Part shown: piece by piece, positions 2,277 through 14,859 of the stretch
Numbering within the stretch: position 1 is the first letter of the stretch
How the letters are laid out: each line of letters opens with the position of its first letter
DNA from: a virus
Direction: 5' to 3' (one strand)
DNA length: 21,561 nucleotides
IMG/VR virus record: IMGVR_UViG_3300046007_009626
Coordinates: 1-21,561 of that record
Notes under the pieces: model-generated
Seen by the model: only the letters and a program-made list of their open reading frames with translations
Database searches by the model: none
What the model was told of the DNA's origin: nothing
Translations under genes and position numbers: made by a program

Positions 2277-3404
2277 ATGGAAAATAATAATAGTGTTTGC
2301 TACATAGCAAAAATTGATGAAATTAAAGTAATACCCGGAGCAGATAATATCGAGCAAGCAGTTATCGGCGGATGGAATTGTATTATTCAAAAGAACCAAT
2401 ACGCCGAAGGTGATTTAGTTATAGTTGCAACAACCGATGCAGTTATACCTCAGGAATTATCAGATGCAATGAACGTAACTAATTACTTACGTAAAGGTGG
2501 GCGTGTGCGTACTGTTAAATTAAGAGGTGTTTATTCTGAGTGTTTGATTATCCCTTTAAAATATATTCCATTTATGGAAAACTATTATGAAGGTAAGGAT
2601 ATGATGTATGCAATGAATATTTATAAATACGAACCACCTGCAATACAAGTACAATTAGCTTCAGGTCGTAAAGTTAAGTACCATCAAAATCCAAACTTTA
2701 CAGTATACTATAAGTTCCCTAACTTTAAAAACGTTAAAGGAATGTTTACTGAAGAAGATGAGGTTCAAATCACTCGTAAACTTCATGGTACTAATGCTCG
2801 TTATGGTATTGTAAAGAAAAGAAATTTATCTTTATGGGATAAGGTTAAAAAATTCTTTGGTATTGCAGATCAGTGGATTGAATACGAATACGTATATGGG
2901 TCTCATAACGTAGAAAAAGGGTCAGATTCGCAAGGGTTTTATGATACCGATGTGTGGAGAACAATAGCCGAAAGCTATGATATTAAAAATAAATTATGGT
3001 CATATGCTAAAACATATGGTCCCGATGTTATTGGAAGCGGAATTATATTGTATGGTGAAATTTGCGGCCCTGGTATTCAAAAGAACTATGATTATGGTTT
3101 AAATAAAATAGAATTCCTAGGATTTGACTTTGTTGAAAATGGTAAGTATTTAGACACTTGGTCTACTGCTCACGTTATTGTTGATAGACTTAATTTACCT
3201 CATGTACCTGAACTATATGTTGGTATGTGGTCTCAAGAAATACAAGATAAATATACATTTAATAATTTTATTGAAGGCTCTAAAGTGCCTCAAGAAGGTA
3301 TCGTTATTAAAGATGTAAGTGGCGAGCGTAGTAAGATAGCGAAGGTAATTAACCCGGACTACCTAATATACGGCGAAAAGCATAATGTAGGAGATAGTCA
3401 TTAA
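2277..3404 (+). CDS. RNA ligase, DraRnl/Rnl5-like (DRB0094 family)
   Basis: A 375-aa ATP-dependent RNA ligase of the covalent nucleotidyltransferase superfamily. Residues 1-100 form the N-terminal OB-like module seen in Deinococcus RNA ligase (KVIPGADNIEQAVIGGW, EGDLVIVATTDAVIPQEL, GRVRTVKLRGVYSECLIIPL). The nucleotidyltransferase domain follows, with motif I TRKLHGTN and predicted AMP-accepting Lys168, motif III-like LYGEICG (258-264), motif IV EGIVIKD (340-346) and motif V KIAKVIN (Lys353, Lys356). All key motifs look intact, so the enzyme should be active. Family enzymes seal 3'-OH/5'-PO4 nicks in duplexes containing RNA. Just upstream of a tRNA and tmRNA island, a plausible role is repair of RNAs cut by host defence nucleases (inference). 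The start ATG at 2277 sits 15 nt after the previous stop, with no Shine-Dalgarno. Confidence 0.88.
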   Translation: MENNNSVCYIAKIDEIKVIPGADNIEQAVIGGWNCIIQKNQYAEGDLVIVATTDAVIPQELSDAMNVTNYLRKGGRVRTVKLRGVYSECLIIPLKYIPFMENYYEGKDMMYAMNIYKYEPPAIQVQLASGRKVKYHQNPNFTVYYKFPNFKNVKGMFTEEDEVQITRKLHGTNARYGIVKKRNLSLWDKVKKFFGIADQWIEYEYVYGSHNVEKGSDSQGFYDTDVWRTIAESYDIKNKLWSYAKTYGPDVIGSGIILYGEICGPGIQKNYDYGLNKIEFLGFDFVENGKYLDTWSTAHVIVDRLNLPHVPELYVGMWSQEIQDKYTFNNFIEGSKVPQEGIVIKDVSGERSKIAKVINPDYLIYGEKHNVGDSH

Positions 3405-3405
3405 G

Positions 3406-3948
3406 ATGATAAAGCAATCGTTCGTTAACGCTCATAATATACACTTATATATTAAGGTTCCTGATCATTTATGGTATACTGCTACACATTATACGCACGT
3501 ACCTAGTAAAGACCCAGAATATCCTTATTTTGCAAACGAACAGCGATATGGATGGATGGATGTTGTTTATTTAACTGACCCTATTATAGACGCATCTGGC
3601 GGATTTCGTGACCCAGAATGGATCTATATATTAGTTAATAAATCTATGCCTGGTATGGTTAAAATTGGACTAACTACAACATCTGTTACGCAGCGTGTTA
3701 AAGAAATAAACAGTGCTACTGGCGTTCCTACTCCTTGGCTCTCTGTTTACCAATTTAAATGTTATGGTTCTAGATATTTAGAAAAAGAAGTTCATGAATA
3801 TTTGTCTACTTATAGGGTAGCATCTAATCGAGAAATGTTTGCTGTCACATCGACACATGCCCAAGAAGTTATTGAAAAGTTAGGCGACCCGTATACAAAT
3901 ATTTTTTATGATGAACAAATAAAATCTAAAAAAGATTTGGAAATTTAA
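3406..3948 (+). CDS. T5orf172/MUG113-type GIY-YIG-like protein
   Basis: A 180-aa protein. Residues 1-68 are an unassigned N-terminal region rich in Tyr and Trp. Residues 71-160 match the T5orf172/MUG113 branch of the GIY-YIG superfamily: WIYILVNKSMPGMVKIGLTT supplies the two Tyr/Gly strand motifs in their relaxed 'YIL ... VKIG' form. Arg97 follows in TQRVKEIN, SATGVPTPW is the family signature loop, Glu126-Glu128 fall in YLEKEVHEYL, and NREMF (141-145) is the usual end motif. The presence of Tyr, Arg and Glu means nuclease chemistry is possible, but many family members are of unknown activity. It starts 1 nt after the RNA ligase stop, so the two are likely co-expressed. A free-standing homing endonuclease is an alternative reading. 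Confidence 0.75.
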   Translation: MIKQSFVNAHNIHLYIKVPDHLWYTATHYTHVPSKDPEYPYFANEQRYGWMDVVYLTDPIIDASGGFRDPEWIYILVNKSMPGMVKIGLTTTSVTQRVKEINSATGVPTPWLSVYQFKCYGSRYLEKEVHEYLSTYRVASNREMFAVTSTHAQEVIEKLGDPYTNIFYDEQIKSKKDLEI

Positions 3949-3967
3949 AATGTTTTAATTATCTTTA
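3936..3967 (+). promoter_or_regulatory. Bacteroidetes-type promoter for a leaderless gene
   Basis: TTTG at 3936-3939 and TATCTTTA at 3960-3967, with the standard 21-nt offset. The ATG of the zinc-finger gene begins 12 nt after the first base of the box, at the expected transcription start, so the mRNA is predicted to be leaderless. The -33 element lies inside the last codons of the preceding gene. Confidence 0.6.
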
Positions 3968-3971
3968 TGAT

Positions 3972-4190
3972 ATGGAAATAATTAGATATTGCAGTATATG
4001 TAATGAACGTATACCTCAGGGAAGATTAAAAGCTATCCCTTCAACTAAAACTTGCACTAATCATAGTAATGAGTTTAGATATGCAGGGAGAATGGTTATA
4101 CATCATAAAACAGGCAATGAAATTGAAATCTACAGAGATAAAAATATTGCTAAAGAAATGTTTAGATTAGATAGCACTAAAGGAAGATAA
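3972..4190 (+). CDS. Small DksA/TraR-like zinc-finger protein
   Basis: A 72-aa protein. Residues 6-33 (YCSICNERIPQGRLKAIPS followed by TKTCTNHSN) follow the DksA/TraR C4-finger layout C-x2-C-x(n)-R-L-x-A-x-P-x(n)-C-x2-C, except that the last ligand is His instead of Cys (C-T-N-H). The coiled-coil half of true DksA is absent, so this is a finger-only protein such as occurs in many phages. It may bind RNA polymerase or nucleic acid, but this is inferred from family resemblance. The promoter at 3936-3967 places the start codon at the predicted transcription start. Confidence 0.65.
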   Translation: MEIIRYCSICNERIPQGRLKAIPSTKTCTNHSNEFRYAGRMVIHHKTGNEIEIYRDKNIAKEMFRLDSTKGR

Positions 4191-5588: not shown

Positions 5589-5660
5589 TGCGGGCGGGTG
5601 GTAAGGTATCACATGAGTCTCATAAGCTCATCAAACATGGTTCGATTCCATGGCGGCGCA
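5589..5660 (+). tRNA. tRNA-Met-like (CAU), acceptor stem degenerate
   Basis: The D arm is GTGG-TAAGGTA-TCAC (5598-5612), the anticodon loop CTCATAA (5619-5625) is on TGAGT/GCTCA, and the T arm is CATGG-TTCGATT-CCATG. The acceptor does not form 7 bp: only TTGCG/CGCAA (5588-5592 with 5657-5661) pairs. It is either a divergent tRNA-Met or tRNA-Ile (lysidine), or a decayed gene. Confidence 0.6.
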
Positions 5661-5714
5661 ACAATTTTAAAAAAATTCAATTAAAAACAAAAGTTACGAG
5701 ATATATATTATTAT

Positions 5715-5831
5715 ATGACACTGAGAAATATACATACATCATCATGCGGATTTAAATATCCCGTTAGCGGCCAAGAATTTTGGGCGCCGATTAATGATAT
5801 GTATAAAAGTATTTCCGAAAATCATATATAA
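5715..5831 (+). CDS. 38-aa small protein
   Basis: ATG 5715 to TAA 5829 encodes 38 residues: MTLRNIHTSSCGFKYPVSGQ followed by EFWAPINDMYKSISENHI. It contains ordinary, non-repetitive residues (CGFKYPVSG, EFWAPIND), unlike the AT-rich low-complexity products expected from noise, and a strong terminator follows 46 nt downstream. It has no Shine-Dalgarno, like most genes here. It sits alone between a tRNA-Met-like gene and the terminator. No family recognised. Confidence 0.45.
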   Translation: MTLRNIHTSSCGFKYPVSGQEFWAPINDMYKSISENHI

Positions 5832-5876
5832 TTAAGATTATTAAAAAATAGATTAAATCTTATAAATTTATATAAA

Positions 5877-5903
5877 CCTCGGACATTAAATCCGGGGTTT
5901 TTT
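5877..5903 (+). terminator. Rho-independent terminator
   Basis: A 7-bp stem CCTCGGA / TCCGGGG (one G-U pair) with loop CATTAAA, followed by six T's (5898-5903). It closes the unit containing the tRNA-Met-like gene and the 38-aa ORF. Confidence 0.85.
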
Positions 5904-5933
5904 ATTGTATATATGGGCTATCTTTAATCGTAT

Positions 5934-5962
5934 TTGGACTTATATTAGTTATATGATATAAT
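5934..5962 (+). promoter_or_regulatory. Possible promoter, sigma70-like spacing
   Basis: TTGGAC at 5934-5939, a 17-nt spacer and TATAAT at 5957-5962. This matches the classical sigma70 layout, while its TTTG also lies 21 nt upstream of the TA box as in the Bacteroidetes sites. The box lacks the TTTA half. In AT-rich DNA this may be chance. Confidence 0.3.
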
Positions 5963-6027
5963 ATACCTAAAAGAAATAAAGAGCGTATATGATCATTTAA
6001 ATAGGTATAAAAATAAATAAAAAAAGG

Positions 6028-6058
6028 TTGGATATTTGAAAAGAATCTCTTATCTTTA
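6028..6058 (+). promoter_or_regulatory. Bacteroidetes-type promoter of the first large tRNA block
   Basis: TTG at 6028-6030 (in TTGGATATTTGA) and TATCTTTAAGTATAATA from 6051. tRNA-Phe starts at 6076. The same extended sequence (TTxGGAxATxTGA ... TATCTTTAAGTATAATA) recurs at 7115-7146. Confidence 0.75.
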
Positions 6059-6075
6059 AGTATAATAAAAAATAA

Positions 6076-6149
6076 GCGGCTGGAGCAGGTGAGGTGTATT
6101 GCGCTGGTCTGAAAAACCAGAGAAATTGGGTCAGTACCAATCGGCCGCA
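6076..6149 (+). tRNA. tRNA-Phe (GAA)
   Basis: Acceptor GCGGCTG/CGGCCGC, anticodon stem CTGGT/ACCAG with loop CTGAAAA (GAA), A73, no encoded CCA. The T stem ATTGG/CCAAT is intact but the T loop is GTCAGTA, which lacks T54 and A58. Confidence 0.88.
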
Positions 6150-6160
6150 CAAAAAAATAA

Positions 6161-6232
6161 GTGGATATGGTGTTAACGGTAGCATCACGGTCTCCAAAAC
6201 CGCAGGTCAGGGTTCGAATCCTTGTATCCATG
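6161..6232 (+). tRNA. tRNA-Trp (CCA)
   Basis: Acceptor GTGGATA/TATCCAT (G1-U72), D stem GGTGT/GCATC with loop TAACGGTA, anticodon loop CTCCAAA (CCA), T arm CAGGG-TTCGAAT-CCTTG and the usual G73. Confidence 0.9.
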
Positions 6233-6239
6233 CAAAAAA

Positions 6240-6286
6240 ATCGTTTAAGCGATAGGAAATCGCAGGTAGGTTAAGCGATTCCTATC
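6240..6286 (+). other. Structured spacer: alternative hairpins between tRNA-Trp and tRNA-Asn
   Basis: GATAGGAAATCGC (6251-6263) pairs with GCGATTCCTATC (6275-6286) with one bulge, 12 bp in all. An alternative small hairpin ATCG-TTTAAG-CGAT (6240-6253) uses part of the same sequence, so the two folds exclude each other. No oligo-T follows, so it is not a terminator. Confidence 0.45.
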
Positions 6287-6291
6287 AAAAA

Positions 6292-6363
6292 TGAGGTGTA
6301 GCTCAGAGGCAGAGCGCTGACCTGTTAAGTCAGATGACGAGATTTCGAAATTCTCCACCTCAG
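6292..6363 (+). tRNA. tRNA-Asn (GUU)
   Basis: Acceptor TGAGGTG/CACCTCA, D arm GCTC-AGAGGCA-GAGC, anticodon stem CTGAC/GTCAG with loop CTGTTAA (GTT), T loop TTCGAAA, G73. Confidence 0.92.
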
Positions 6364-6375
6364 CAATAAAAATAA

Positions 6376-6447
6376 GGGACGATGCCCAGGGCAGGTCAGA
6401 CGGTCTGTAAAACCGAACTGCATAGTGATCGTGACACTTCCGTCCCA
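6376..6447 (+). tRNA. tRNA-Tyr (GUA)
   Basis: Acceptor GGGACGA/CCGTCCC (6 of 7 pairs), anticodon loop CTGTAAA (GTA), T stem around loop ATCGTGA, which lacks T54, A73. The variable region is short for a bacterial tRNA-Tyr, which normally has a long arm. Confidence 0.82.
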
Positions 6448-6482
6448 CAAAAAAAATAAAAATGAAACGAAAACCACTATAA

Positions 6483-6510
6483 GGTGCTAATAACTAGGTT
6501 ATGAAGCATC
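6483..6510 (+). other. Structured spacer hairpin upstream of tRNA-Lys
   Basis: GGTGCT (6483-6488) pairs with AGCATC (6505-6510), and the inner ATAAC (6490-6494) pairs with GTTAT around a TAG loop, giving an 11-bp two-part hairpin. There is no T run and no tRNA features. Confidence 0.45.
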
Positions 6511-6528
6511 ACAAAAACAAAATTGTAT

Positions 6529-6601
6529 GCCTTCGTAGCTTAAGAGGAAGAGCACCTAGCTTTTAACTAGGGTAGTGGGGTTTCGAGTACCTCCGGGGGC
6601 A
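6529..6601 (+). tRNA. tRNA-Lys (UUU)
   Basis: Acceptor GCCTTCG/CGGGGGC (two U-G pairs), anticodon stem CCTAG/CTAGG with loop CTTTTAA (TTT), T arm GGGGT-TTCGAGT-ACCTC, A73. Confidence 0.92.
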
Positions 6602-6641
6602 CAAGTTCATTTATTGATTTTTAACATATTGTAAATTATTA

Positions 6642-6714
6642 GGTCTCGTGGTCTAGTGGCTTAGGATACATGACTGTCTATCATGGGGTGAGGGTTCGAT
6701 TCCCTTCGAGACCG
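6642..6714 (+). tRNA. tRNA-Asp (GUC), CCA encoded
   Basis: Acceptor GGTCTCG/CGAGACC, anticodon stem CATGA/TCATG with loop CTGTCTA (GTC), T arm GAGGG-TTCGATT-CCCTT, G73 followed directly by CCA (6715-6717). One of only three RNAs here with an encoded CCA. Confidence 0.95.
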
Positions 6715-6725
6715 CCAAAAAATAT

Positions 6726-6799
6726 AGAGTAGTAGCCTAATTGGTCGAGGCACTTCATTTGGGATGAAGACGATGTCGGTTCGAGTCCGGTCTACTCTA
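6726..6799 (+). tRNA. tRNA-Pro (UGG)
   Basis: Acceptor AGAGTAG/CTACTCT, anticodon stem CTTCA/TGAAG with loop TTTGGGA (TGG), T loop TTCGAGT, A73. Confidence 0.92.
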
Positions 6800-6804
6800 C
6801 AAAA

Positions 6805-6855
6805 TGGCCAAATGCCTGAGTAAATATTATATGAAATAGTATAAGGCGGCCGCCA
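6805..6855 (+). other. Structured spacer: extended hairpin between tRNA-Pro and tRNA-Gly
   Basis: TGGC (6805-6808) pairs with GCCA (6852-6855), GCCT (6814-6817) with AGGC (6844-6847) and ATATTA (6824-6829) with TAGTAT (6837-6842). These form a 51-nt three-part hairpin that fills nearly the whole gap between the two tRNAs. It has no T loop. Confidence 0.45.
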
Positions 6856-6856
6856 T

Positions 6857-6928
6857 GCGGGTATAGCACAATGGTTAGTGCTCTGGTCTTCCAAACCTGA
6901 GATCTCAGTTCGAGTCTGAGTATCCGCT
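6857..6928 (+). tRNA. tRNA-Gly (UCC)
   Basis: Acceptor GCGGGTA/TATCCGC, D stem GCAC/GTGC, anticodon loop CTTCCAA (TCC), T arm CTCAG-TTCGAGT-CTGAG, T73. Confidence 0.92.
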
Positions 6929-6934
6929 CAAAAT

Positions 6935-7010
6935 GGGCTGCCATGTTCCAAGGCTTCGGCGATTCTCCTTTGCACGGAGAGTGTGTAGGGTTCGATTCCC
7001 TAGCGGTCCA
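6935..7010 (+). tRNA. tRNA-Ala (UGC)
   Basis: Acceptor GGGCTGC/GCGGTCC with the alanine identity pair G3-U70, anticodon stem TCTCC/GGAGA with loop TTTGCAC (TGC), T arm TAGGG-TTCGATT-CCCTA, A73. Confidence 0.93.
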
Positions 7011-7018
7011 CAAAAAAT

Positions 7019-7092
7019 GCCGAGTTGGTAGAGTTGGTTTCTTACGGGGCTCTCATAAGGCTCAGACATAGGTTCGAATCCTATATTCGGTA
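7019..7092 (+). tRNA. tRNA-Met or tRNA-Ile2 (CAU), first clear copy
   Basis: Acceptor GCCGAGT/ATTCGGT (G1-U72), anticodon loop CTCATAA on GGGCT/GGCTC, T arm ATAGG-TTCGAAT-CCTAT, A73. Methionine and lysidine-modified isoleucine tRNAs cannot be told apart from the sequence alone. It lacks the C1:A72 mismatch of initiators. Confidence 0.85.
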
Positions 7093-7114
7093 CTTTAAAA
7101 AAAGATAAAAAAGA

Positions 7115-7146
7115 TTAGGAAATATGAATTGTTTTTCTTATCTTTA
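7115..7146 (+). promoter_or_regulatory. Bacteroidetes-type promoter of the second tRNA block
   Basis: TTAG at 7115-7118 (in TTAGGAAATATGAA) and TATCTTTAAGTATAATA from 7139, nearly identical to the promoter at 6028-6058. tRNA-Gln begins at 7185. Confidence 0.75.
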
Positions 7147-7184
7147 AGTATAATAAGAAATAAAGATCTTTGACGTATTGTAAT

Positions 7185-7255
7185 TCTCCCTTCGTCTAAT
7201 GGCAGGACAAGCGGTTTTGAGCCGCTGAATCGAGGTTCGAGTCCTTGGGGGAGAA
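7185..7255 (+). tRNA. tRNA-Gln (UUG)
   Basis: Acceptor TCTCCCT/GGGGAGA, anticodon stem AGCGG/CCGCT with loop TTTTGAG (TTG), T arm CGAGG-TTCGAGT-CCTTG, A73. Confidence 0.93.
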
Positions 7256-7270
7256 CGCTTTTATGAATAA

Positions 7271-7350
7271 GTTAGCAGCATAAACAATTGACGGAATGCT
7301 GTAAGTCTTAAGGACTTTGGGGATATGAAGTACAGTAATATCCCCTAAAC
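7271..7350 (+). ncRNA. Putative structured RNA: three consecutive hairpins, tRNA-sized
   Basis: About 80 nt between tRNA-Gln and tRNA-Met. Hairpin 1 is GCAGCAT (7275-7281) with ATGCTGT (7296-7302). Hairpin 2 is AAGTC-TTAAG-GACTT (7303-7317). Hairpin 3 is a perfect 8-bp GGGGATAT (7319-7326) with ATATCCCC (7338-7345). Weak end pairing, GTT with AAC, would close a cloverleaf-like shape. There is no T loop, no anticodon arm of standard size and no T run, so it is neither a tRNA nor a terminator. Function unknown. Confidence 0.5.
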
Positions 7351-7353
7351 AAA

Positions 7354-7427
7354 GGACCTTTAGCTCATTAGGTTAGAGCAGCTCGCTCATAACGAGAAGG
7401 TGACAAGTTCGATTCTTGTAAGGTCCA
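7354..7427 (+). tRNA. tRNA-Met (CAU), second clear copy
   Basis: Acceptor GGACCTT/AAGGTCC, D arm AGCTC...GAGC, anticodon loop CTCATAA on GCTCG/CGAGA, T arm ACAAG-TTCGATT-CTTGT, A73. Closest in layout to bacterial elongator tRNA-Met. Confidence 0.93.
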
Positions 7428-7434
7428 CAAAAAT

Positions 7435-7508
7435 GCTCCCGTCGTCTAATTGGTTAGGACATCCCCCTTTCACGGGGAAGCTTGCGAGTTCGAGTCTCGT
7501 CGGGAGTA
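7435..7508 (+). tRNA. tRNA-Glu (UUC)
   Basis: Acceptor GCTCCCG/CGGGAGT (G1-U72), anticodon stem TCCCC/GGGGA with loop CTTTCAC (TTC), T arm GCGAG-TTCGAGT-CTCGT, A73. Confidence 0.93.
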
Positions 7509-7513
7509 CAATT

Positions 7514-7586
7514 GCTGATATGGCCGATTGGTTTAGGCACTAACCTGATACGTTAGTCTAGGTAGGTTCGATTCCTGCTATCAGCA
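7514..7586 (+). tRNA. tRNA-Ile (GAU), CCA encoded
   Basis: Acceptor GCTGATA/TATCAGC, anticodon stem CTAAC/GTTAG with loop CTGATAC (GAT), T arm around TTCGATT, A73 followed by CCA (7587-7589). Confidence 0.94.
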
Positions 7587-7589
7587 CCA

Positions 7590-7675
7590 AAATAAGGTGA
7601 CGCTACAGTTGTAAGAGCTCGGGCTCGAGAAAACAAAAAGCCTAAGTGTAAAGATGAGCTCCTACAGCCTTATTT
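7590..7675 (+). ncRNA. Putative structured RNA with a tRNA-like 5' half
   Basis: An 86-nt element between tRNA-Ile and tRNA-Thr, closed by a perfect 8-bp helix AAATAAGG (7590-7597) / CCTTATTT (7668-7675). After two spacer positions comes GCTACAGTTGTAAGAGC (7602-7618), very close to a tRNA D arm. The 3' half has no T loop. An alternative long helix pairs 7608-7613 plus GAGCTC (7615-7620) with GAGCTC (7656-7661) plus 7663-7668, with an inner GGGCT/AGCCT stem (7621-7625 with 7639-7643). It may be a decayed tRNA or a distinct RNA. Confidence 0.5.
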
Positions 7676-7681
7676 TATAAT

Positions 7682-7753
7682 GCTCGGTTAGTTTAATTGG
7701 TAAAACGCCTGATTTGTAACCAGGGGTCATCGGATCGTAACCGGTACTGAGCT
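7682..7753 (+). tRNA. tRNA-Thr (UGU)
   Basis: Acceptor GCTCGGT/ACTGAGC, anticodon stem CCTGA/CCAGG (imperfect) with loop TTTGTAA (TGT), T loop ATCGTAA, which lacks T54, T73. Confidence 0.87.
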
Positions 7754-7756
7754 CAA

Positions 7757-7835
7757 ATAAACTTATATCCCACACCCGGGGTTAGTGATAATATTAAAGG
7801 GGGTCATAACGTACACAAGTCGTTAGTAAGTTTAT
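7757..7835 (+). ncRNA. Putative structured RNA closed by a 9-bp helix
   Basis: 79 nt between tRNA-Thr and tRNA-Val. ATAAACTTA (7757-7765) pairs perfectly with TAAGTTTAT (7827-7835). Inside, GTTA-G-TGA (7781-7788) pairs with TCATAAC (7804-7810), or alternatively TAACG (7807-7811) pairs with CGTTA (7821-7825). The two inner folds compete. There is no T loop or anticodon arm. It ends 2 nt before tRNA-Val. Confidence 0.5.
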
Positions 7836-7837
7836 AT

Positions 7838-7913
7838 GGTCGCTTCGCTTAGTTGGTTTTAAAGCATTTCGTTTACACCGAAAAGATCATCTGTTCGAAT
7901 CAGATAGCGACTA
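7838..7913 (+). tRNA. tRNA-Val (UAC)
   Basis: Acceptor GGTCGCT/AGCGACT (G1-U72), anticodon stem TTTCG/CGAAA with loop TTTACAC (TAC), T arm TCTG-TTCGAAT-CAGA, A73. Confidence 0.93.
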
Positions 7914-7925
7914 CAAAACATTAAT

Positions 7926-8038
7926 CACAAATAAAGTTGTGAGTTGTATTGAAATAGCCAATTATAAGTCAACATAAAGCTGTTGAATACAGACGGAATA
8001 ATTAACCAGAGTATAGGCACCGATTGTGACAGTACAAC
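7926..8038 (+). ncRNA. Putative structured RNA between tRNA-Val and tRNA-Ser
   Basis: A small hairpin CACAA-ATAAAG-TTGTG (7926-7941) precedes a multibranched element closed by GTTGTA (7943-7948) / TACAAC (8033-8038). Inside are AATTAT (7960-7965) / ATAATT (7998-8003) enclosing CAACA-TAAAGC-TGTTG (7970-7985), and the hairpin CAC-CGATT-GTG. The gap holds no ORF of note and no tRNA features. Confidence 0.45.
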
Positions 8039-8044
8039 AAATAT

Positions 8045-8076
8045 CCCTCTGAGTGAGTTATGTTTTATATAGAGGG
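8045..8076 (+). promoter_or_regulatory. Anti-acceptor hairpin overlapping the tRNA-Ser 5' end
   Basis: CCCTCT (8045-8050) is complementary to AGAGGG (8071-8076), which is the 5' acceptor strand of the following tRNA-Ser. A precursor could fold in this competing way. The upstream copy resembles the tRNA's own 3' acceptor strand. Confidence 0.3.
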
Positions 8077-8162
8077 TTGAGAGAGATGGATGATTCTGCT
8101 AGTCTTGAAAACTAGATGTCGCGTAAATCCGGGGCACATGGGTTCGAATCCCATACCCTCTT
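8071..8162 (+). tRNA. tRNA-Ser (UGA)
   Basis: A class II tRNA with a long variable arm. Acceptor AGAGGGT/ACCCTCT, anticodon stem CTAGT/ACTAG with loop CTTGAAA (TGA), T arm ATGGG-TTCGAAT-CCCAT. Position 73 is T, where bacterial tRNA-Ser normally has G. Confidence 0.88.
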
Positions 8163-8168
8163 CAAAAT

Positions 8169-8240
8169 GGGCGATTGTCTGAATGGCTTAGGTGGCCGCC
8201 TGCAAAGCGGTTTATATAGGTTCGAGTCCTGTATCGCCCT
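8169..8240 (+). tRNA. tRNA-Cys (GCA)
   Basis: Acceptor GGGCGAT/ATCGCCC, anticodon stem GCCGC/GCGGT with loop CTGCAAA (GCA), T loop TTCGAGT, U73, the cysteine identity base. Confidence 0.92.
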
Positions 8241-8255
8241 CAAATAAAAGCAAAG

Positions 8256-8330
8256 AGTAGGCCCCTACTAGGGATATGGGCAGCTGAACTTAAACCTTTG
8301 TGAGTAACCTAAGTATACAAGGTATCCCTA
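8256..8330 (+). ncRNA. Putative structured RNA closed by an 8-bp helix
   Basis: Between tRNA-Cys and tRNA-Ser(GCU). The hairpin AGTAG-GCCC-CTACT (8256-8269) is followed by TAGGGATA (8269-8276) pairing perfectly with TATCCCTA (8323-8330). Inside, ACTTA (8288-8292) pairs with TAAGT (8310-8314). There is no T loop, anticodon arm or T run. Confidence 0.5.
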
Positions 8331-8334
8331 CCAT

Positions 8335-8420
8335 GGAGAGTAAAGCAACCGGGGTGTTGTCACTGCCTGCTAAGCATGTGGTTCGGTAAAACGGATTTGT
8401 TTCGATTACAATGCTCTCCG
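8335..8420 (+). tRNA. tRNA-Ser (GCU)
   Basis: A class II tRNA with a long variable arm. Acceptor GGAGAGT/GCTCTCC, anticodon loop CTGCTAA (GCT) on a weak stem, T arm TTGT-TTCGATT-ACAA, the usual G73. Confidence 0.87.
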
Positions 8421-8428
8421 CAATAAAT

Positions 8429-8513
8429 GCTCCGATGGTGGAATTGGTAGACACGCAGGACTTAAAATTCTGTCCCCGCAAGGGGGGTGCAAGTTCGATT
8501 CTGACCGAGGGTA
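8429..8513 (+). tRNA. tRNA-Leu (UAA), acceptor and T stems imperfect
   Basis: A class II tRNA with a strong variable stem (CCCC-GCAA-GGGG) and anticodon loop CTTAAAA (TAA). The acceptor GCTCCGA against CGAGGGT pairs only with a bulge, and the T stem GCAAG/CTGAC keeps 3 of 5 pairs around TTCGATT. It is probably functional but drifting. Confidence 0.8.
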
Positions 8514-8518
8514 CTAAT

Positions 8519-8591
8519 AGTTCTATGGTGTAATGGATTAGCACCAACGCCTTCTAAGCGTTTAGTATAGGTTCGAATCCTATTAGAACTA
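8519..8591 (+). tRNA. tRNA-Arg (UCU)
   Basis: Acceptor AGTTCTA/TAGAACT, anticodon stem AACGC/GCGTT with loop CTTCTAA (TCT), T arm ATAGG-TTCGAAT-CCTAT, A73. Confidence 0.93.
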
Positions 8592-8604
8592 CAAAAATAA
8601 AAAT

Positions 8605-8736
8605 GTACCACGATGCTTCCCGTAAGAACAGCACAATTTTCAGTGGTGATTTCTCCACGCAAACGAATAGCCCAAGGCATAAGTTATGGTGGATTACCAA
8701 ACCTCTCCTTAATGGACGCATTAAGTGAAGTTTGGG
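8605..8736 (+). other. Structured spacer upstream of the interrupted tRNA
   Basis: TACCAC (8606-8611) pairs with GTGGTG (8643-8648). Further on, CCAAAC (8697-8702) pairs with GTTTGG (8730-8735) around an inner hairpin CTTAAT-GGACGC-ATTAAG (8708-8725). ACCTCTCC (8701-8708) and AGTTTGGG (8729-8736) are also each perfectly complementary to 8-mers inside the following tRNA-like gene. No gene is visible in this stretch. Confidence 0.45.
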
Positions 8737-8740
8737 ACTT

Positions 8741-8835
8741 AGTCAGGTGGTGTAATGGTAACACTCGGAGAGGTAGTCGCTAAAACGTTAAGGTTGACCC
8801 AAACTGAAATACAGGTTCGAATCCTGTCCTGACTA
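8741..8835 (+). tRNA. Interrupted tRNA-like gene, no recognisable anticodon arm
   Basis: Acceptor AGTCAGG/CCTGACT is perfect, the D arm is GTGT-AATGGTA-ACAC (8750-8764) and the T arm ACAGG-TTCGAAT-CCTGT (8811-8827), with A73. The segment between the arms (8765-8810) is 46 nt, where about 22 nt is usual, and I find no 5-bp stem with a T33-containing 7-nt loop. It contains GGAGAGGT (8767-8774) and CCCAAACT (8798-8805), both complementary to the upstream spacer. The identity is undetermined. It may carry an insertion or be non-functional. Confidence 0.6.
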
Positions 8836-8836
8836 C
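8811..8836 (+). repeat. 26-bp direct repeat, left copy (tRNA T arm plus acceptor)
   Basis: Identical over 26 bp to 9131-9156. This copy is the 3' end of the tRNA-like gene. The spacing of the copies is 320 bp. Confidence 0.95.
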
Positions 8837-8842
8837 TAAACA

Positions 8843-9118
8843 ATGGAAAACATGGAATTTGATAAATTAAAAAAAGGAGATTATGTTAAATGGGTCGCCA
8901 ACAGAACAATTGGTGGTGTAACATATAAAAGTTGGGACACTTTCGGGAAAATAATTTCAAAGGATAAAGAAAAAATTACTGTTATGACTTATGATGATTT
9001 TAAAAAGACAGACCTATCAAAAAGTGGTGATGCTGTAAGAGAAGAAATTTCATTAGCCACTAAATGGAATGTTTCAGTAATAAAACGATTATTAGGATGC
9101 GTTAGGGAAATTTTTTAA
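8843..9118 (+). CDS. 91-aa protein carried between duplicated tRNA ends
   Basis: ATG 8843 to TAA 9116 encodes 91 aa, starting 7 nt after the tRNA-like gene. The sequence KLKKGDYVKWVANRTIGGVT, then DTFGKIISKDKEKITVMTYDD, suggests a small SH3/KOW-like beta-barrel ('KKGDxVKW' followed by a strand pattern). The C terminus is helical (EEISLATKWNVSVIKRLLG). There is no integrase, transposase or homing-nuclease motif. It is the only protein gene inside the second tRNA block, and it lies in a unit flanked by exact 26-bp copies of a tRNA 3' end. It may have been acquired as cargo at a tRNA site. Function unknown. It has no Shine-Dalgarno. Confidence 0.65.
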   Translation: MENMEFDKLKKGDYVKWVANRTIGGVTYKSWDTFGKIISKDKEKITVMTYDDFKKTDLSKSGDAVREEISLATKWNVSVIKRLLGCVREIF

Positions 9119-9130
9119 ATTAAATAAATG

Positions 9131-9156
9131 ACAGGTTCGAATCCTGTCCTGACTAC
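9131..9156 (+). repeat. 26-bp direct repeat, right copy (orphan tRNA 3' end)
   Basis: An exact copy of 8811-8836 with no 5' tRNA half attached, resembling the remnant left when an element inserts at a tRNA 3' end. Confidence 0.95.
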
Positions 9157-9165
9157 AAACTTAAA

Positions 9166-9252
9166 ACCGATCCGGGTTCGTGAACAAGGGAGGCCTGCGA
9201 CTTGAAATAAAGACAAATCACGTTAAATCTCCCCACGTAAGGTGGTATCGGT
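9166..9252 (+). ncRNA. Putative structured RNA with cloverleaf-like pairing
   Basis: ACCGAT (9166-9171) pairs with ATCGGT (9247-9252). Inside are the hairpin GTTC-GT-GAAC (9176-9185), the long stem GGGAG (9188-9192) / CTCCC (9229-9233) and the hairpin CCAC-GTAAG-GTGG (9233-9245, sharing one base with the stem). These give 87 nt with three branches. There is no TTCRA loop at the T-arm position and no anticodon arm. It lies between the orphan tRNA end and tRNA-Arg. Confidence 0.5.
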
Positions 9253-9265
9253 GACCTTACAAACT

Positions 9266-9338
9266 GCTTCCTTAGTTCAATGGATCAGAACACTCGGCTA
9301 CGAACCGGGAGATAGGAGTTCGAATCTCTTAGGAAGTG
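9266..9338 (+). tRNA. tRNA-Arg (ACG)
   Basis: Acceptor GCTTCCT/AGGAAGT (G1-U72), anticodon stem CTCGG/CCGGG with loop CTACGAA (ACG, normally edited to ICG), T arm AGGAG-TTCGAAT-CTCTT, G73. Confidence 0.92.
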
Positions 9339-9345
9339 CAAACAC

Positions 9346-9419
9346 GGTGTTTATGTTGTTAATGGTTAGCATACAAGATTGTGATTCTTGAGGTAGCAGT
9401 TCGAATCTGCTTAAACACA
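9346..9419 (+). tRNA. tRNA-His (GUG)
   Basis: Includes the extra G at -1 (9346). Acceptor GTGTTTA/TAAACAC, anticodon stem CAAGA/TCTTG with loop TTGTGAT (GTG), T arm AGCAG-TTCGAAT-CTGCT. Position 73 is A, where bacterial tRNA-His normally has C opposite G-1. Confidence 0.9.
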
Positions 9420-9436
9420 CTAATATAATATTTATA

Positions 9437-9454: not shown

Positions 9455-9925
9455 ATGAATCTACAATTTAAGTCTTTAGGTAATCATCAAGTAATTGGTG
9501 ATGTTTTCGGTTATATTCAAAATTTACTTAATGAAAAGCCAGAAACTAAATTATATGTAGGAACGGATTCTCAAAACTCCCGCAGAATGACAACGTATGC
9601 AACTGTAATTGTTTTACATATAAATGAAAATGATAATGGTAAAGGTGCTCATGTATTATACAGTAAAGATATTTTACCTAAAATGAAAGATCGCTTCTCA
9701 AGGTTATGGGGCGAAGTAGAACGTTCTGTTGAAGTATCTAATATGCTTAGAGACGGCGGTCTAACTATTAAAAATATTGACTTAGATTTTAACGAAGACC
9801 CTAAATATAATTCAAATACCGTATTACGTTCAGCTGTTGGTTATGTTGAAGCATCTGGGTTTAAAGCAAGATGGAAACCTCATAATGCGTTTAGTGTTAG
9901 AGTAGCAGATCAAATTTGTAAATAG
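9455..9925 (+). CDS. DUF458 (YkuK-like) RNase H-fold protein
   Basis: A 156-aa protein matching the DUF458/YkuK layout of RNase H-like proteins. TKLYVGTDSQNSRR (residues 31-44, strand with Asp38) is followed by YATVIVLHI. Next come Glu87/Glu89 in a helix (LWGEVERSVEVSNMLRD), IDLDFNEDPKYNSN (108-121) and a C-terminal KPHNAFSVRVADQICK with Asp152. These acidic positions fit the RNase H catalytic arrangement, so nuclease activity is plausible but not demonstrated for the family as far as I know. It directly follows the tRNA array and overlaps nothing. It is the first gene of a new unit with a strong Shine-Dalgarno, and the next gene starts 1 nt after its stop. Confidence 0.8.
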   Translation: MNLQFKSLGNHQVIGDVFGYIQNLLNEKPETKLYVGTDSQNSRRMTTYATVIVLHINENDNGKGAHVLYSKDILPKMKDRFSRLWGEVERSVEVSNMLRDGGLTIKNIDLDFNEDPKYNSNTVLRSAVGYVEASGFKARWKPHNAFSVRVADQICK

Positions 9926-9926
9926 T

Positions 9927-10499
9927 ATGATAGTAAAAAGTGAATTTTATTTATATATTTATCGTTTTTTTAAACCGCTTCAAGATTTAATAAATGTTCC
10001 ATTTATGATTGGCGGTGGTGCAGTAAGTGATTTAATTGCATTTGGGTTTATTCAAAAAGACTATGATATATTTTTTCGTTCATTTGAAGATTTAATGGTT
10101 TTTGAAGCACGCATAAAAGAATTGGGCTTTAAATTAGTATCAGAAACAAATTTTGGGCGACAATATAGCTTTTTAAATTTAAATTTAGATCTTATAACTT
10201 GGCACGTAAAAACGCCTGAACAGTTTATTAGTTTATTTGATTTTACAGTTAATTCAATTATGTTAGATGGTAATGATTTATATCATGCAGAAACATTAAT
10301 TGAAGATTGTTTATATAAAAGATTAATACCTGTGCGAAATTTAAATGATCAATATGTATATCGTATTAAACGGTATAAAGAAAAAGGATATAATATTAAT
10401 ATTCACCCAGCTTTAAATGAAATTTCATTTAATAATATTACAGATATGCCTATTTCACCCGTATCTTTTGTAAAAGTAGATTTAAGTTATTATTCATAA
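9927..10499 (+). CDS. CCA-adding-enzyme-like nucleotidyltransferase
   Basis: A 190-aa protein with a polymerase-beta-type nucleotidyltransferase core. GGGAVSD (29-35) is the glycine motif, FIQKDYDIFF supplies the DxD metal ligands Asp45 and Asp47, and LNLDLITW gives a third carboxylate at Asp88. LFDFTVNSIMLDG (103-115) resembles the 'RRDFTINALA' motif of CCA-adding and poly(A) polymerases, and a basic tail region (VYRIKRYKEKGYN) follows. It is about half the length of a full CCA enzyme and lacks a clear EDxxR template motif, so it is a minimal or divergent form. It sits right after a tRNA array in which nearly all tRNAs lack encoded CCA, so 3'-end building or repair is an attractive but unproven role. 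It starts 1 nt after the DUF458 stop. Confidence 0.7.
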   Translation: MIVKSEFYLYIYRFFKPLQDLINVPFMIGGGAVSDLIAFGFIQKDYDIFFRSFEDLMVFEARIKELGFKLVSETNFGRQYSFLNLNLDLITWHVKTPEQFISLFDFTVNSIMLDGNDLYHAETLIEDCLYKRLIPVRNLNDQYVYRIKRYKEKGYNINIHPALNEISFNNITDMPISPVSFVKVDLSYYS

Positions 10500-13893: not shown

Positions 13894-13912
13894 CATCTTT
13901 ATATAAAAAAAA

Positions 13913-13944
13913 TTAGGATATTTGATTTGTTTTTCATATCTTTA
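13913..13944 (+). promoter_or_regulatory. Bacteroidetes-type promoter of leaderless uvdE
   Basis: TTAG at 13913-13916 and TATCTTTA at 13937-13944, then TGT-ATG. The ATG at 13948 is 11 nt from the start of the box, as for thioredoxin. The promoter lies 20 nt after the terminator. Confidence 0.72.
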
Positions 13945-13947
13945 TGT

Positions 13948-14859
13948 ATGATAAATGAATTAGGATATGCCTGCATCAATGCAACGCTACAAAAACAAAA
14001 GATTTTTACTAATCGAGGTATGAAACAAGCCACTTTTAAAGCTAAAGGGCTTGAATATGTATCAGAATTAGCTTTAAAAAATGTAATAGATTTAGAAAAA
14101 ATCATACATTGGAATGAATTAAATAATATTCGGTTTTTCCGAATTAGTAGCGATTTATTTCCTTGGTATTCGCACTACAACATCGAGCAGCTTAATAACC
14201 ACACAGAAATCCTTGAAATATTAAATAGGATAGGTATATATGCTAAGGCTCATAATCACCGATTAGGCGCTCATCCAGGGCCGTTTAATTTATTAGCATC
14301 CCCTAATGAAGAAGTAGTAAAAAAGACTCTTATTGAGCTTGAAAACCACTCCAAAATATTTGATATGTTAGGGCTATCCGAAACGCCATTTAATAAAATT
14401 AATATTCATATCGGCGCTACATACAATAACAAAGAATTAGCAGCAAAAACATGGGTAACGAATGTTAAACGATTATCTCCGGCTTGTAAGTCTAGATTAA
14501 CTGTTGAAAATGATGACAAAGCTTCAATGTGGTCAGTTCGAGAATTGTATGAAATGGTTTATAAAGAATGTGGTGTTCCTATTGTATTTGATTATCATCA
14601 TCATTCCTTTTGCACAGGGGATTTATCAGAATACGAAGCTTTATCATTAGCCATTAAAACTTGGCCCGCAGGAATTATACCAGCAACGCACTATTCAGAA
14701 AGTAAAGCAGAACATTTAAATGACCCTACTATAAAAAGACAAGCCCATAGTGAATTAGTTAATGGGCCGATAAATTCATATGATCATATAATAGATGTGA
14801 TGCTAGAATGTAAGTGTAAAGAAGTAGGTTTATTGAACTACAGGAAAAATATTCAGTAA
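13948..14859 (+). CDS. uvsE: UV damage endonuclease (UvdE/Uve1)
   Basis: A 303-aa TIM-barrel endonuclease that nicks DNA 5' to UV photoproducts and other distortions, starting an alternative excision repair. Family signatures are LGYACINATL (5-14), NRGM (22-25), FRISSDLFPW (64-73), LGAHPG with His109, NIHIG with His154, VENDDK with Glu187, FDYHHHSF with Asp215 and His218, THYSES with His248, and HSELV with Glu269. These cover the expected metal-binding His/Glu/Asp set, so it should be active. ATG 13948 is chosen: the longer frame starts at a TTG within the promoter, and the shorter start matches the family N terminus. It forms a single-gene unit with its own promoter after a terminator. Confidence 0.92.
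   Translation: MINELGYACINATLQKQKIFTNRGMKQATFKAKGLEYVSELALKNVIDLEKIIHWNELNNIRFFRISSDLFPWYSHYNIEQLNNHTEILEILNRIGIYAKAHNHRLGAHPGPFNLLASPNEEVVKKTLIELENHSKIFDMLGLSETPFNKINIHIGATYNNKELAAKTWVTNVKRLSPACKSRLTVENDDKASMWSVRELYEMVYKECGVPIVFDYHHHSFCTGDLSEYEALSLAIKTWPAGIIPATHYSESKAEHLNDPTIKRQAHSELVNGPINSYDHIIDVMLECKCKEVGLLNYRKNIQ

What the first reader, a model, noticed from the sequence alone, without database searches (positions are those of the whole stretch)
6240..9252. A series of structured, often tRNA-sized non-tRNA elements interleaved with the tRNAs
At least nine spacers (6240-6286, 6483-6510, 6805-6855, 7271-7350, 7590-7675, 7757-7835, 7926-8038, 8256-8330, 9166-9252) carry strong nested helices. 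Five of the larger ones are closed by perfect 6-9-bp terminal helices around 70-100 nt, like a tRNA acceptor stem, with two or three inner hairpins but no T loop or anticodon arm. T4 encodes two stable RNAs (C and D) of unknown function in its tRNA operon, so a class of such RNAs is plausible. They could be decoys for tRNA-targeting enzymes, processing guides, or fast-decaying tRNAs.
Basis: partly seen in the sequence, partly recalled or inferred. Interest (0 to 1): 0.85.

Follow-up and report, generated by a model that had tools for sequence, protein, structure and literature searches.

The report
Structured RNA genes among phage tRNAs
The gaps between this uncultured phage's tRNA genes hold several kinds of small folded RNA genes that recur, with compensating base changes, in many other phages, so they are conserved parts of the phage and not filler; beside them lies a tRNA-shaped RNA family whose middle has been replaced by ever-different sequence.

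Summary
Folding energy alone separates only about half of the nine spacers from shuffled sequence, but comparison with related phages settles most. 7257-7350, 9157-9265, 8242-8334, 6234-6291 and the 6483-6510 hairpin are conserved with many compensatory changes; 7755-7837 and 6801-6856 rest on few sequences; 7590-7681 and 7915-8070 have no relatives found. Two drawn 'terminal helices' are really pseudoknots between one end and a hairpin loop.

The main families occupy different tRNA intervals in different phages and fit exactly between tRNA ends, so I read them as small RNA genes matured with the tRNAs. None matches Rfam. 6462-6510 differs: a minigene (MKRKPL) plus a hairpin touching its stop codon; such MKRK minigenes precede tRNA-Lys in 10 of 10 loci, suggesting a leader that reads lysine codons.

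The strangest part was not on the list: 8593-8740 (44 viral stretches, 17 double-changed pairs) directly abuts 8741-8836, a member of a family of at least 145 distinct tRNA-like RNAs with constant acceptor, D and T arms but a hypervariable payload in place of the anticodon arm. No RNA product has been shown; functions are inferred.

The parts
6022..6067 (+). Promoter-like repeat upstream of tRNA-Phe; further copies at 7108-7155 (before tRNA-Gln), 3929-3977 and 13906-13954
   Evidence: nhmmer family with many copies upstream of genes and tRNAs in this and related phages; promoter role inferred from position and a TATAAT-like core
6234..6291 (+). Family A RNA: 5' ATCG pairs with the loop of a 3' hairpin (AGG-TTAAGCGAT-CCT), variable middle hairpin
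   Evidence: Six phages; 84/84 cells paired, 6 double-changed pairs
6462..6482 (+). Minigene ATGAAACGAAAACCACTATAA (MKRKPL)
   Evidence: MKRK minigenes in 10 loci, all followed by tRNA-Lys; cognate mini-ORFs 16/26 before tRNA-Lys against 25/471 before other tRNAs
6483..6510 (+). Hairpin directly after the minigene stop codon, upstream of tRNA-Lys (6529-6602)
   Evidence: z -3.1; unrelated but self-complementary hairpins directly after the stop in the relatives
6801..6856 (+). Hairpin RNA between tRNA-Pro and tRNA-Gly
   Evidence: One relative (L005) that differs in the stems only by compensatory pairs, by eye; weak set
7257..7350 (+). E1 RNA: three hairpins, highly conserved loops; starts 0 nt after the upstream tRNA
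   Evidence: Ten phages, covariation 0.272 against 0.123 shuffled
7590..7681 (+). Structured spacer, orphan
   Evidence: z about -2.1; no relatives
7755..7837 (+). E2 RNA between tRNA-Thr and tRNA-Val, closed by AAACTTA/TAAGTTT
   Evidence: Conserved in L005, L006 and L047 (AAACCTA/TAGGTTT there)
7915..8070 (+). Structured spacer, orphan
   Evidence: z about -1.6; no relatives
8242..8334 (+). F4 RNA: loop of the 5' hairpin (TAGGGATA) pairs with the 3' end (TATCCCTA), a pseudoknot
   Evidence: L004, L005, L006, L009 with nearly every pair changed; 50/51 cells paired, 11 double-changed pairs
8593..8740 (+).
   Evidence: 44 viral stretches; 17 of 31 pairs double-changed, score 0.454 against 0.168 shuffled
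8741..8836 (+). tRNA-like element: acceptor 8741-8747 with 8828-8834, D arm 8750-8764, T arm 8811-8827, variable payload 8765-8810 in place of the anticodon arm
   Evidence: RF00005 47.8 bits; family of >=145 elements
8843..9118 (+). 91-aa ORF lying between the full tRNA-like element and a second copy of its 3' end
   Evidence: ORF list; no Pfam or NCBIfam match
9127..9156 (+). 3' remnant (T arm and acceptor 3' strand) of a second tRNA-like element
   Evidence: Exact copy of the 24-nt pattern; 0.00 expected in shuffles
9157..9265 (+). F5 RNA: double pseudoknot (ACCGA/TCGGT; GGGAG/CTCCC) plus 3' hairpin
   Evidence: 21 of 23 pattern hits lie in tRNA arrays; 206/213 cells paired, 15 double-changed pairs

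Best explanation
Most of the conserved spacers are genes for small structured noncoding RNAs of unrelated families, co-transcribed with the tRNAs and released by the same cuts that make tRNA ends: 3'-end processing of the upstream tRNA makes the RNA's 5' end, and RNase P at the downstream tRNA makes its 3' end. Compact folds, several closed by an end-to-hairpin-loop pseudoknot, would keep them stable. Shown: conservation, compensatory base changes, exact fit between tRNA ends, and occurrence of the same family in different tRNA intervals. Inferred: release as discrete stable RNAs and a trans-acting role during infection, most likely at translation or at tRNA-directed defences. One listed member, 6462-6510, is instead a ribosome-read leader: a lysine/arginine minigene whose stop codon touches a hairpin, in front of tRNA-Lys, plausibly tying tRNA-Lys production to how fast lysine codons are read. 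The adjacent 8593-8836 is a two-part module, a conserved RNA followed by a tRNA chassis that carries a hypervariable payload.
For: Covariation: E1; F5, F4, family A; RNA-I. Exact placement: E1 starts 0 nt after tRNA-Gly, tRNA-Gln or tRNA-Glu in 10 of 10 phages; F5 starts 1-3 nt after the upstream tRNA in most loci and ends 7-9 nt before the next. The same family in different intervals and array orders. F5 and RNA-I also sit next to tRNA-like elements, which would be cut by the same enzymes. Leader: MKRK minigene before tRNA-Lys in 10 of 10 loci; cognate mini-ORF in 16/26 spacers before tRNA-Lys against 25/471 before other tRNAs. Promoter-like repeats lie upstream of tRNA-Phe and tRNA-Gln.
Against: No transcript or product data. 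Energy z-scores of 6805-6855, 7757-7835, 8256-8330 and 9166-9252 are not significant. 7590-7681 and 7915-8070 have no relatives. RNA-I also occurs between protein genes in G009, where tRNA enzymes cannot define both ends. Several sequences are closely related, which inflates counts. The leader hairpin has no U-run, so a classical attenuator is not supported.
Confidence: 0.68

Rival explanations
1. The elements act in cis as processing or insulation signals: they keep neighbouring tRNAs from misfolding together or guide RNases to the tRNA ends, and are then destroyed.
For: They lie exactly between tRNA ends; many other tRNA pairs in the same arrays are separated by only a few A-rich bases.
Against: Most tRNA pairs do without such elements; loops are conserved far beyond what a spacer needs; RNA-I and F5 also occur outside ordinary tRNA arrays.
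Confidence: 0.2
2. Some are self-cleaving ribozymes that make tRNA 3' ends, like the HDV-like theta ribozymes of Bacteroidota phages; E1 is the best candidate.
For: E1 begins exactly at the tRNA 3' end in all ten phages and has near-invariant loops; the window encodes an RNA ligase related to the DRB0094 family, a family reported as enriched in theta-ribozyme phages (PMC10879173).
Against: A crude HDV double-pseudoknot descriptor found 1 weak hit at 488 tRNA 3' ends, none in the window; E1, F5 and RNA-I have other topologies; no known ribozyme family matches.
Confidence: 0.1
3. The RNAs, above all the tRNA-like family, are decoys that absorb tRNA-targeting host nucleases or tRNA-binding factors.
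For: The chassis keeps the acceptor, D and T arms and lacks an anticodon arm in 109 of 111 elements, so anticodon nucleases could not cut it; tRNA-directed defences are widespread (for example PMC11555353, PMC12409363).
Against: A decoy does not need a payload that differs in nearly every copy (111 payloads, 100 clusters); the nine spacers have no tRNA features by RF00005.
Confidence: 0.15
4. They are chance folds, tRNA remnants or insertion debris without function.
For: Four of the nine have weak energy z-scores above -1.5; 7590-7681 and 7915-8070 have no relatives; a partial tRNA-like copy at 9127-9156 shows that rearrangement happens here.
Against: Covariation far above shuffled and slid controls and many double-changed pairs; no tRNA score for the nine.
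Confidence: 0.05

Closest known systems
T4 RNAC and RNAD, stable RNAs of the T4 tRNA cluster
   Same: Small non-tRNA RNAs encoded among phage tRNA genes, function unknown (PMC9697503).
   Different: E1, F5 and RNA-I have no match in 50,697 GenBank phage records; here there are many families per array, shared between distant phages and relocating among tRNA intervals.
GOLLD and ROOL RNAs (and the Rfam family freshwater-1)
   Same: Structured RNAs encoded near phage tRNA islands (PMC12286853); relatives of this array carry GOLLD, and one carries freshwater-1.
   Different: The elements here are 30-150 nt and match no Rfam model; the window itself has no GOLLD.
HDV-like theta ribozymes
   Same: Lie at tRNA 3' ends in phages mostly assigned to Bacteroidota hosts, with RNA ligase nearby in the genome (PMC10879173).
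   Different: No HDV-like double pseudoknot at the tRNA ends tested.
tmRNA tRNA-like domain, and engineered tRNA scaffolds
   Same: Acceptor, D-like and T arms with the anticodon region replaced by other RNA.
   Different: Payload only about 20-140 nt and different in almost every copy; pair 3-70 of the chassis is U-A, not G-U; many dispersed copies per genome.
Amino-acid leader peptides (attenuators)
   Same: Minigene rich in codons for the amino acid of the downstream gene, with a hairpin placed where a ribosome could control it.
   Different: By position it would control a phage tRNA gene; no intrinsic terminator in the sequence.

Membership tests
tRNA (for the nine spacers) | Match to RF00005 | tested here: not met
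   No RF00005 match in any of the nine spacers at E<=5
tRNA (for 8741-8836) | Acceptor stem, D arm and T arm | tested here: met
   RF00005 47.8 bits; acceptor helix in the minimum-energy fold of 110/111 family members
tRNA (for 8741-8836) | Anticodon arm of 5 bp with a 7-nt loop and U33 | tested here: not met
   Present in 2 of 111 family members; ARAGORN calls the window copy 'tRNA-???'
tmRNA (for 8741-8836) | G3-U70 pair in the acceptor stem | tested here: not met
   Acceptor AGTCAGG/CCTGACT read directly from the sequence
Rfam families incl. GOLLD, ROOL, freshwater-1 | Covariance-model score at or above the gathering cut-off | tested here: not met
   Only tmRNA and tRNA reach their cut-offs in the window; RNA-I likewise has no match
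T4 RNAC/RNAD | Encoded inside a phage tRNA cluster | tested here: met
T4 RNAC/RNAD | Sequence relationship to records of cultured phages | tested here: not met
   E1, F5 and RNA-I: no blastn match among 50,697 phage records; the other elements were not tested
T4 RNAC/RNAD | Stable RNA product | not testable with these tools
   No RNA data
Theta (HDV-like) ribozyme | 5' end within 1 nt of a tRNA 3' end | tested here: met
   E1 only, 10 of 10
Theta (HDV-like) ribozyme | Nested double pseudoknot with catalytic C | tested here: not met
   Descriptor search of 488 tRNA 3' ends; home-made and crude
Amino-acid leader (attenuator) | Short ORF with cognate codons upstream of the gene | tested here: met
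   16/26 spacers before tRNA-Lys against 25/471 before other tRNAs
Amino-acid leader (attenuator) | Intrinsic terminator (hairpin plus U-run) | tested here: not met
   Sequence after 6510 is ACAAAAACAAAATTG, no U-run
Amino-acid leader (attenuator) | Response to charged tRNA supply | not testable with these tools
   Needs a reporter experiment

The most novel reading that the evidence does not exclude
Uncultured, mostly freshwater-type phages carry a dispersed RNA system in which a constant tRNA-Leu-like chassis (acceptor, D and T arms), in many cases directly preceded by a conserved three-hairpin RNA, displays a different payload in nearly every copy (at least 145 distinct elements, up to 8 in one phage record): a natural 'tRNA scaffold' library, with tRNA arrays serving as a maturation platform and as a home for further small RNAs.
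Probability: 0.5. Interest if true: 0.92.

Novelty: new variant of a known kind. Interest (0 to 1): 0.8.

Why it matters
Phage tRNA arrays are usually read as codon supply. Here one array holds at least eight conserved elements that Rfam does not know, most with comparative support, so arrays can be RNA-gene islands that tRNA enzymes mature. The tRNA-like family scores as tRNA with RF00005 and could inflate tRNA counts in surveys of large phages. A lysine minigene in front of tRNA-Lys makes it testable whether phages sense loss of tRNA-Lys, a known target of bacterial defence nucleases.

Tried and rejected
Energy z-scores as proof: too weak, since real tRNAs score only -1.5 on average. HDV-like theta ribozymes: descriptor negative. 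RNase P RNA in the relatives' Leu(tag)>Arg(tct) spacer: looked alike by eye, but no Rfam hit at E<5 and none with RF00010 at E<=10, so not claimed. Antisense of tRNA-like payloads to the phage's own genome: no excess over shuffles for the 8 payloads of G009 (the unmasked first run, only found each element itself). E1 in prokaryote genomes: no exact match. The chassis 3' pattern in prokaryote genomes: six MAG contigs only, four of them labelled Bacteroidota. Ordinary cultured-phage relatives: none. Literature on anticodon-less tRNA-like phage RNAs or phage RNase P RNA: nothing found, within open-licence papers only. Sequence search of 9927-10499 against solved structures: uninformative.
Full report
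What was checked. The window carries a tmRNA and a dense tRNA array at 5589-9420. I asked whether they fold better than shuffled sequence, whether they are conserved with compensatory change, and what else is in the array.

Folding energy. With 500 dinucleotide shuffles each, four of the nine are clearly below background (6240-6286, 6483-6510, 7271-7350, 7590-7675) and the rest are not; 8256-8330 is even above its shuffles (z +0.6). The window's own tRNAs average only -1.5, so this test has little power, and it misses pseudoknots.

Relatives. The RNase H-like protein downstream of the array (9455-9925) led to nine related loci, and a pattern from spacer 7257-7350 to four more tRNA arrays. Comparing spacers between arrays showed conserved elements, some in changing positions.

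E1, 7257-7350. Ten phages, about 94 nt, starting 0 nt after tRNA-Gly, tRNA-Gln or tRNA-Glu in all ten (ARAGORN's tRNA end includes one base after the discriminator). Three hairpins; 96.6% of cells paired, 7 double-changed pairs, covariation 0.272 against 0.123 in shuffles, slid controls at most 0.111. One pair occurs as A-U, G-C and C-G.

F5, 9157-9265. A pattern scan gave 23 hits, 21 within tRNA arrays of very different order; a further copy follows a tRNA-like element in L105. A second pseudoknot (GGGAG/CTCCC, GAGGG/CCCTC, GAGAG/CTCTC, GAGGA/TCCTC) and a further helix (CGTGA/TCACG, TAAAG/CTTTA, TGACA/TGTCA) also covary. Overall 206 of 213 cells pair and 15 pairs have double changes; strands were paired by hand.

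F4, 8242-8334, and family A, 6234-6291. Both contain a pseudoknot of an end with a hairpin loop, with 11 and 6 double-changed pairs in 4-5 and 6 sequences (a chance test for the F4 pairing gives p 0.012-0.078 per sequence). In family A the pseudoknot itself does not vary; the frame (5' AAATCGT, 3' AGGTTAAGCGAT..CCT) is constant and the middle hairpin differs in every phage.

Weaker cases. 7755-7837 (four phages) and 6801-6856 (two phages) each show about two compensatory pairs by eye. 7590-7681 and 7915-8070 have no relatives and stay unproven.

6462-6510 is something else. ATGAAACGAAAACCACTATAA encodes MKRKPL, and the hairpin begins right after the stop codon. A search for (A/G)TGAAACGAAAAC found ten such minigenes (MKRK plus 1-4 residues), and the next tRNA is tRNA-Lys in all ten, about seven lineages. 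Without using that motif, I asked how often a 4-12-codon ORF with two or more cognate codons lies in the spacer before each tRNA: Lys 16 of 26, against 25 of 471 for Lys codons before other tRNAs; the next best, Leu, is 14/59 against 48/438. L116 has MKRKTTKRKHK with a different hairpin directly after its stop and a synonymous AAG, which points to selection on the peptide or its codons. I read it as a leader by which ribosome speed on lysine codons affects the hairpin and so tRNA-Lys. There is no U-run, so control of processing or of Rho is likelier than an intrinsic terminator; this step is inference.

What was missed. 8593-8740 (RNA-I) was not listed. A 26-nt core pattern hit 44 stretches of viral contigs. 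In 18 sequences 96.1% of cells pair and 17 of 31 pairs show double changes, score 0.454 against 0.168, slid controls at most 0.093. In ten distinct loci a tRNA-like element starts at one fixed distance after it, as at 8740|8741 in the window; in others a tRNA-Cys follows, or it lies between protein genes.

That tRNA-like element (8741-8836) belongs to a large family. Of 163 parsed unique elements, 145 start with the exact acceptor strand AGTCAGG, 111 of these have a D arm (20 of 145 after shuffling), only 2 of the 111 have a normal anticodon arm, and their 111 payloads (21-141 nt) fall into 100 clusters. The T arm and 3' acceptor strand were fixed by the search, but elements found only through RNA-I show the same chassis, including compensatory acceptors GGAGCAG/CTGCTCC and GGTCAGA/TCTGACC (more variants). 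The D arm is closest to tRNA-Leu. Payload folding is only slightly better than shuffled (mean z -0.58). The elements sit near tRNAs (54 of 156) or between genes, on the strand of the upstream ORF in 71 of 76 cases, with up to 8 copies in one phage record. Payloads of G009 show no excess complementarity to that phage.

Mechanism. Position, conserved ends and relocation between tRNA intervals fit RNAs released by tRNA-processing enzymes. I give about 0.68 to discrete small RNA genes for most of the conserved spacers, 0.2 to purely cis-acting elements and 0.1 to self-cleavage by some. For the tRNA-like family a scaffold carrying a variable payload is my favourite, at about even odds.

Novelty. 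Stable RNAs in phage tRNA clusters are a known kind (T4 RNAC and RNAD, PMC9697503; GOLLD, PMC12286853; theta ribozymes, PMC10879173). None of the families here is in Rfam 15, and the three tested have no relative in 50,697 GenBank phage records. The hypervariable tRNA-like family may deserve a category of its own; I found no description of it, but only open-licence papers were searched.

Limits. No RNA data; related sequences inflate counts; the strands counted were set by hand, and the 7755-7837 and 6801-6856 comparisons are by eye; a Bacteroidota host is inferred only from four of the six MAG contigs that hold the chassis.

Noticed in passing
8741-8836, 9127-9156; L046, L048-L053, L064 and others: Large dispersed family of tRNA-like RNAs with constant acceptor, D and T arms and a hypervariable central payload; the window holds one full copy and one 3' remnant flanking a 91-aa ORF.
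   Followed up: yes
6462-6510 and the spacer before tRNA-Lys in L003, L004, L005, L009, L011, L014, L020, L032, L116, L128: Lysine/arginine minigene (MKRK...) with a hairpin touching its stop codon (no such hairpin seen in L128), always in front of tRNA-Lys.
   Followed up: yes
L006 6418-6638, L009 6645-6868 and relatives: A ~220-nt structured spacer between tRNA-Leu(taa) and tRNA-Leu(tag) holds a mini-ORF MCLFLRKLNR; a possible leucine leader. Absent from the window.
   Followed up: partly
L003 2845-3044, L005 7407-7612, L009 from 6943: A ~200-nt spacer between tRNA-Leu(tag) and tRNA-Arg(tct) resembles RNase P RNA by eye at both ends (GAGGAAGTTCGCGAC ... AAGATAAATG ... ACAAAATCGCGGCT), but no covariance model supports it.
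   Followed up: partly
L004 363-785, L005 2820-3241, L006 2909-3330, L013 7072-7506, L026 8463-8882: GOLLD RNA in five relatives, near tRNA-Met in several; L013 also carries the Rfam family freshwater-1 inside its tRNA array.
   Followed up: no
2277-3404: RNA ligase related to the DRB0094 family (TIGR02306, E 5e-27 but below its curated cut-off), a family reported as enriched in theta-ribozyme phages (PMC10879173).
   Followed up: partly
9927-10499: By eye the protein has motifs of a CCA-adding-type nucleotidyltransferase (GGGAVSD, DYDIFF, DFTVNS); no family match was found.
   Followed up: partly
L009 1968-2220, L020 5903-6063: Possible permuted tRNA: a T arm with the 3' acceptor strand (CCCTCCCAACCA) lies just upstream of a matching 5' half (TTGGGAGGTGGCGAAATTGG).
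   Followed up: no
5660-6075: A short ORF (about 38 aa, MTLRNIHTSSCGFKYPVSGQEFW...) with a counterpart by eye at the same place in L004-L006, followed by a terminator-like hairpin.
   Followed up: no
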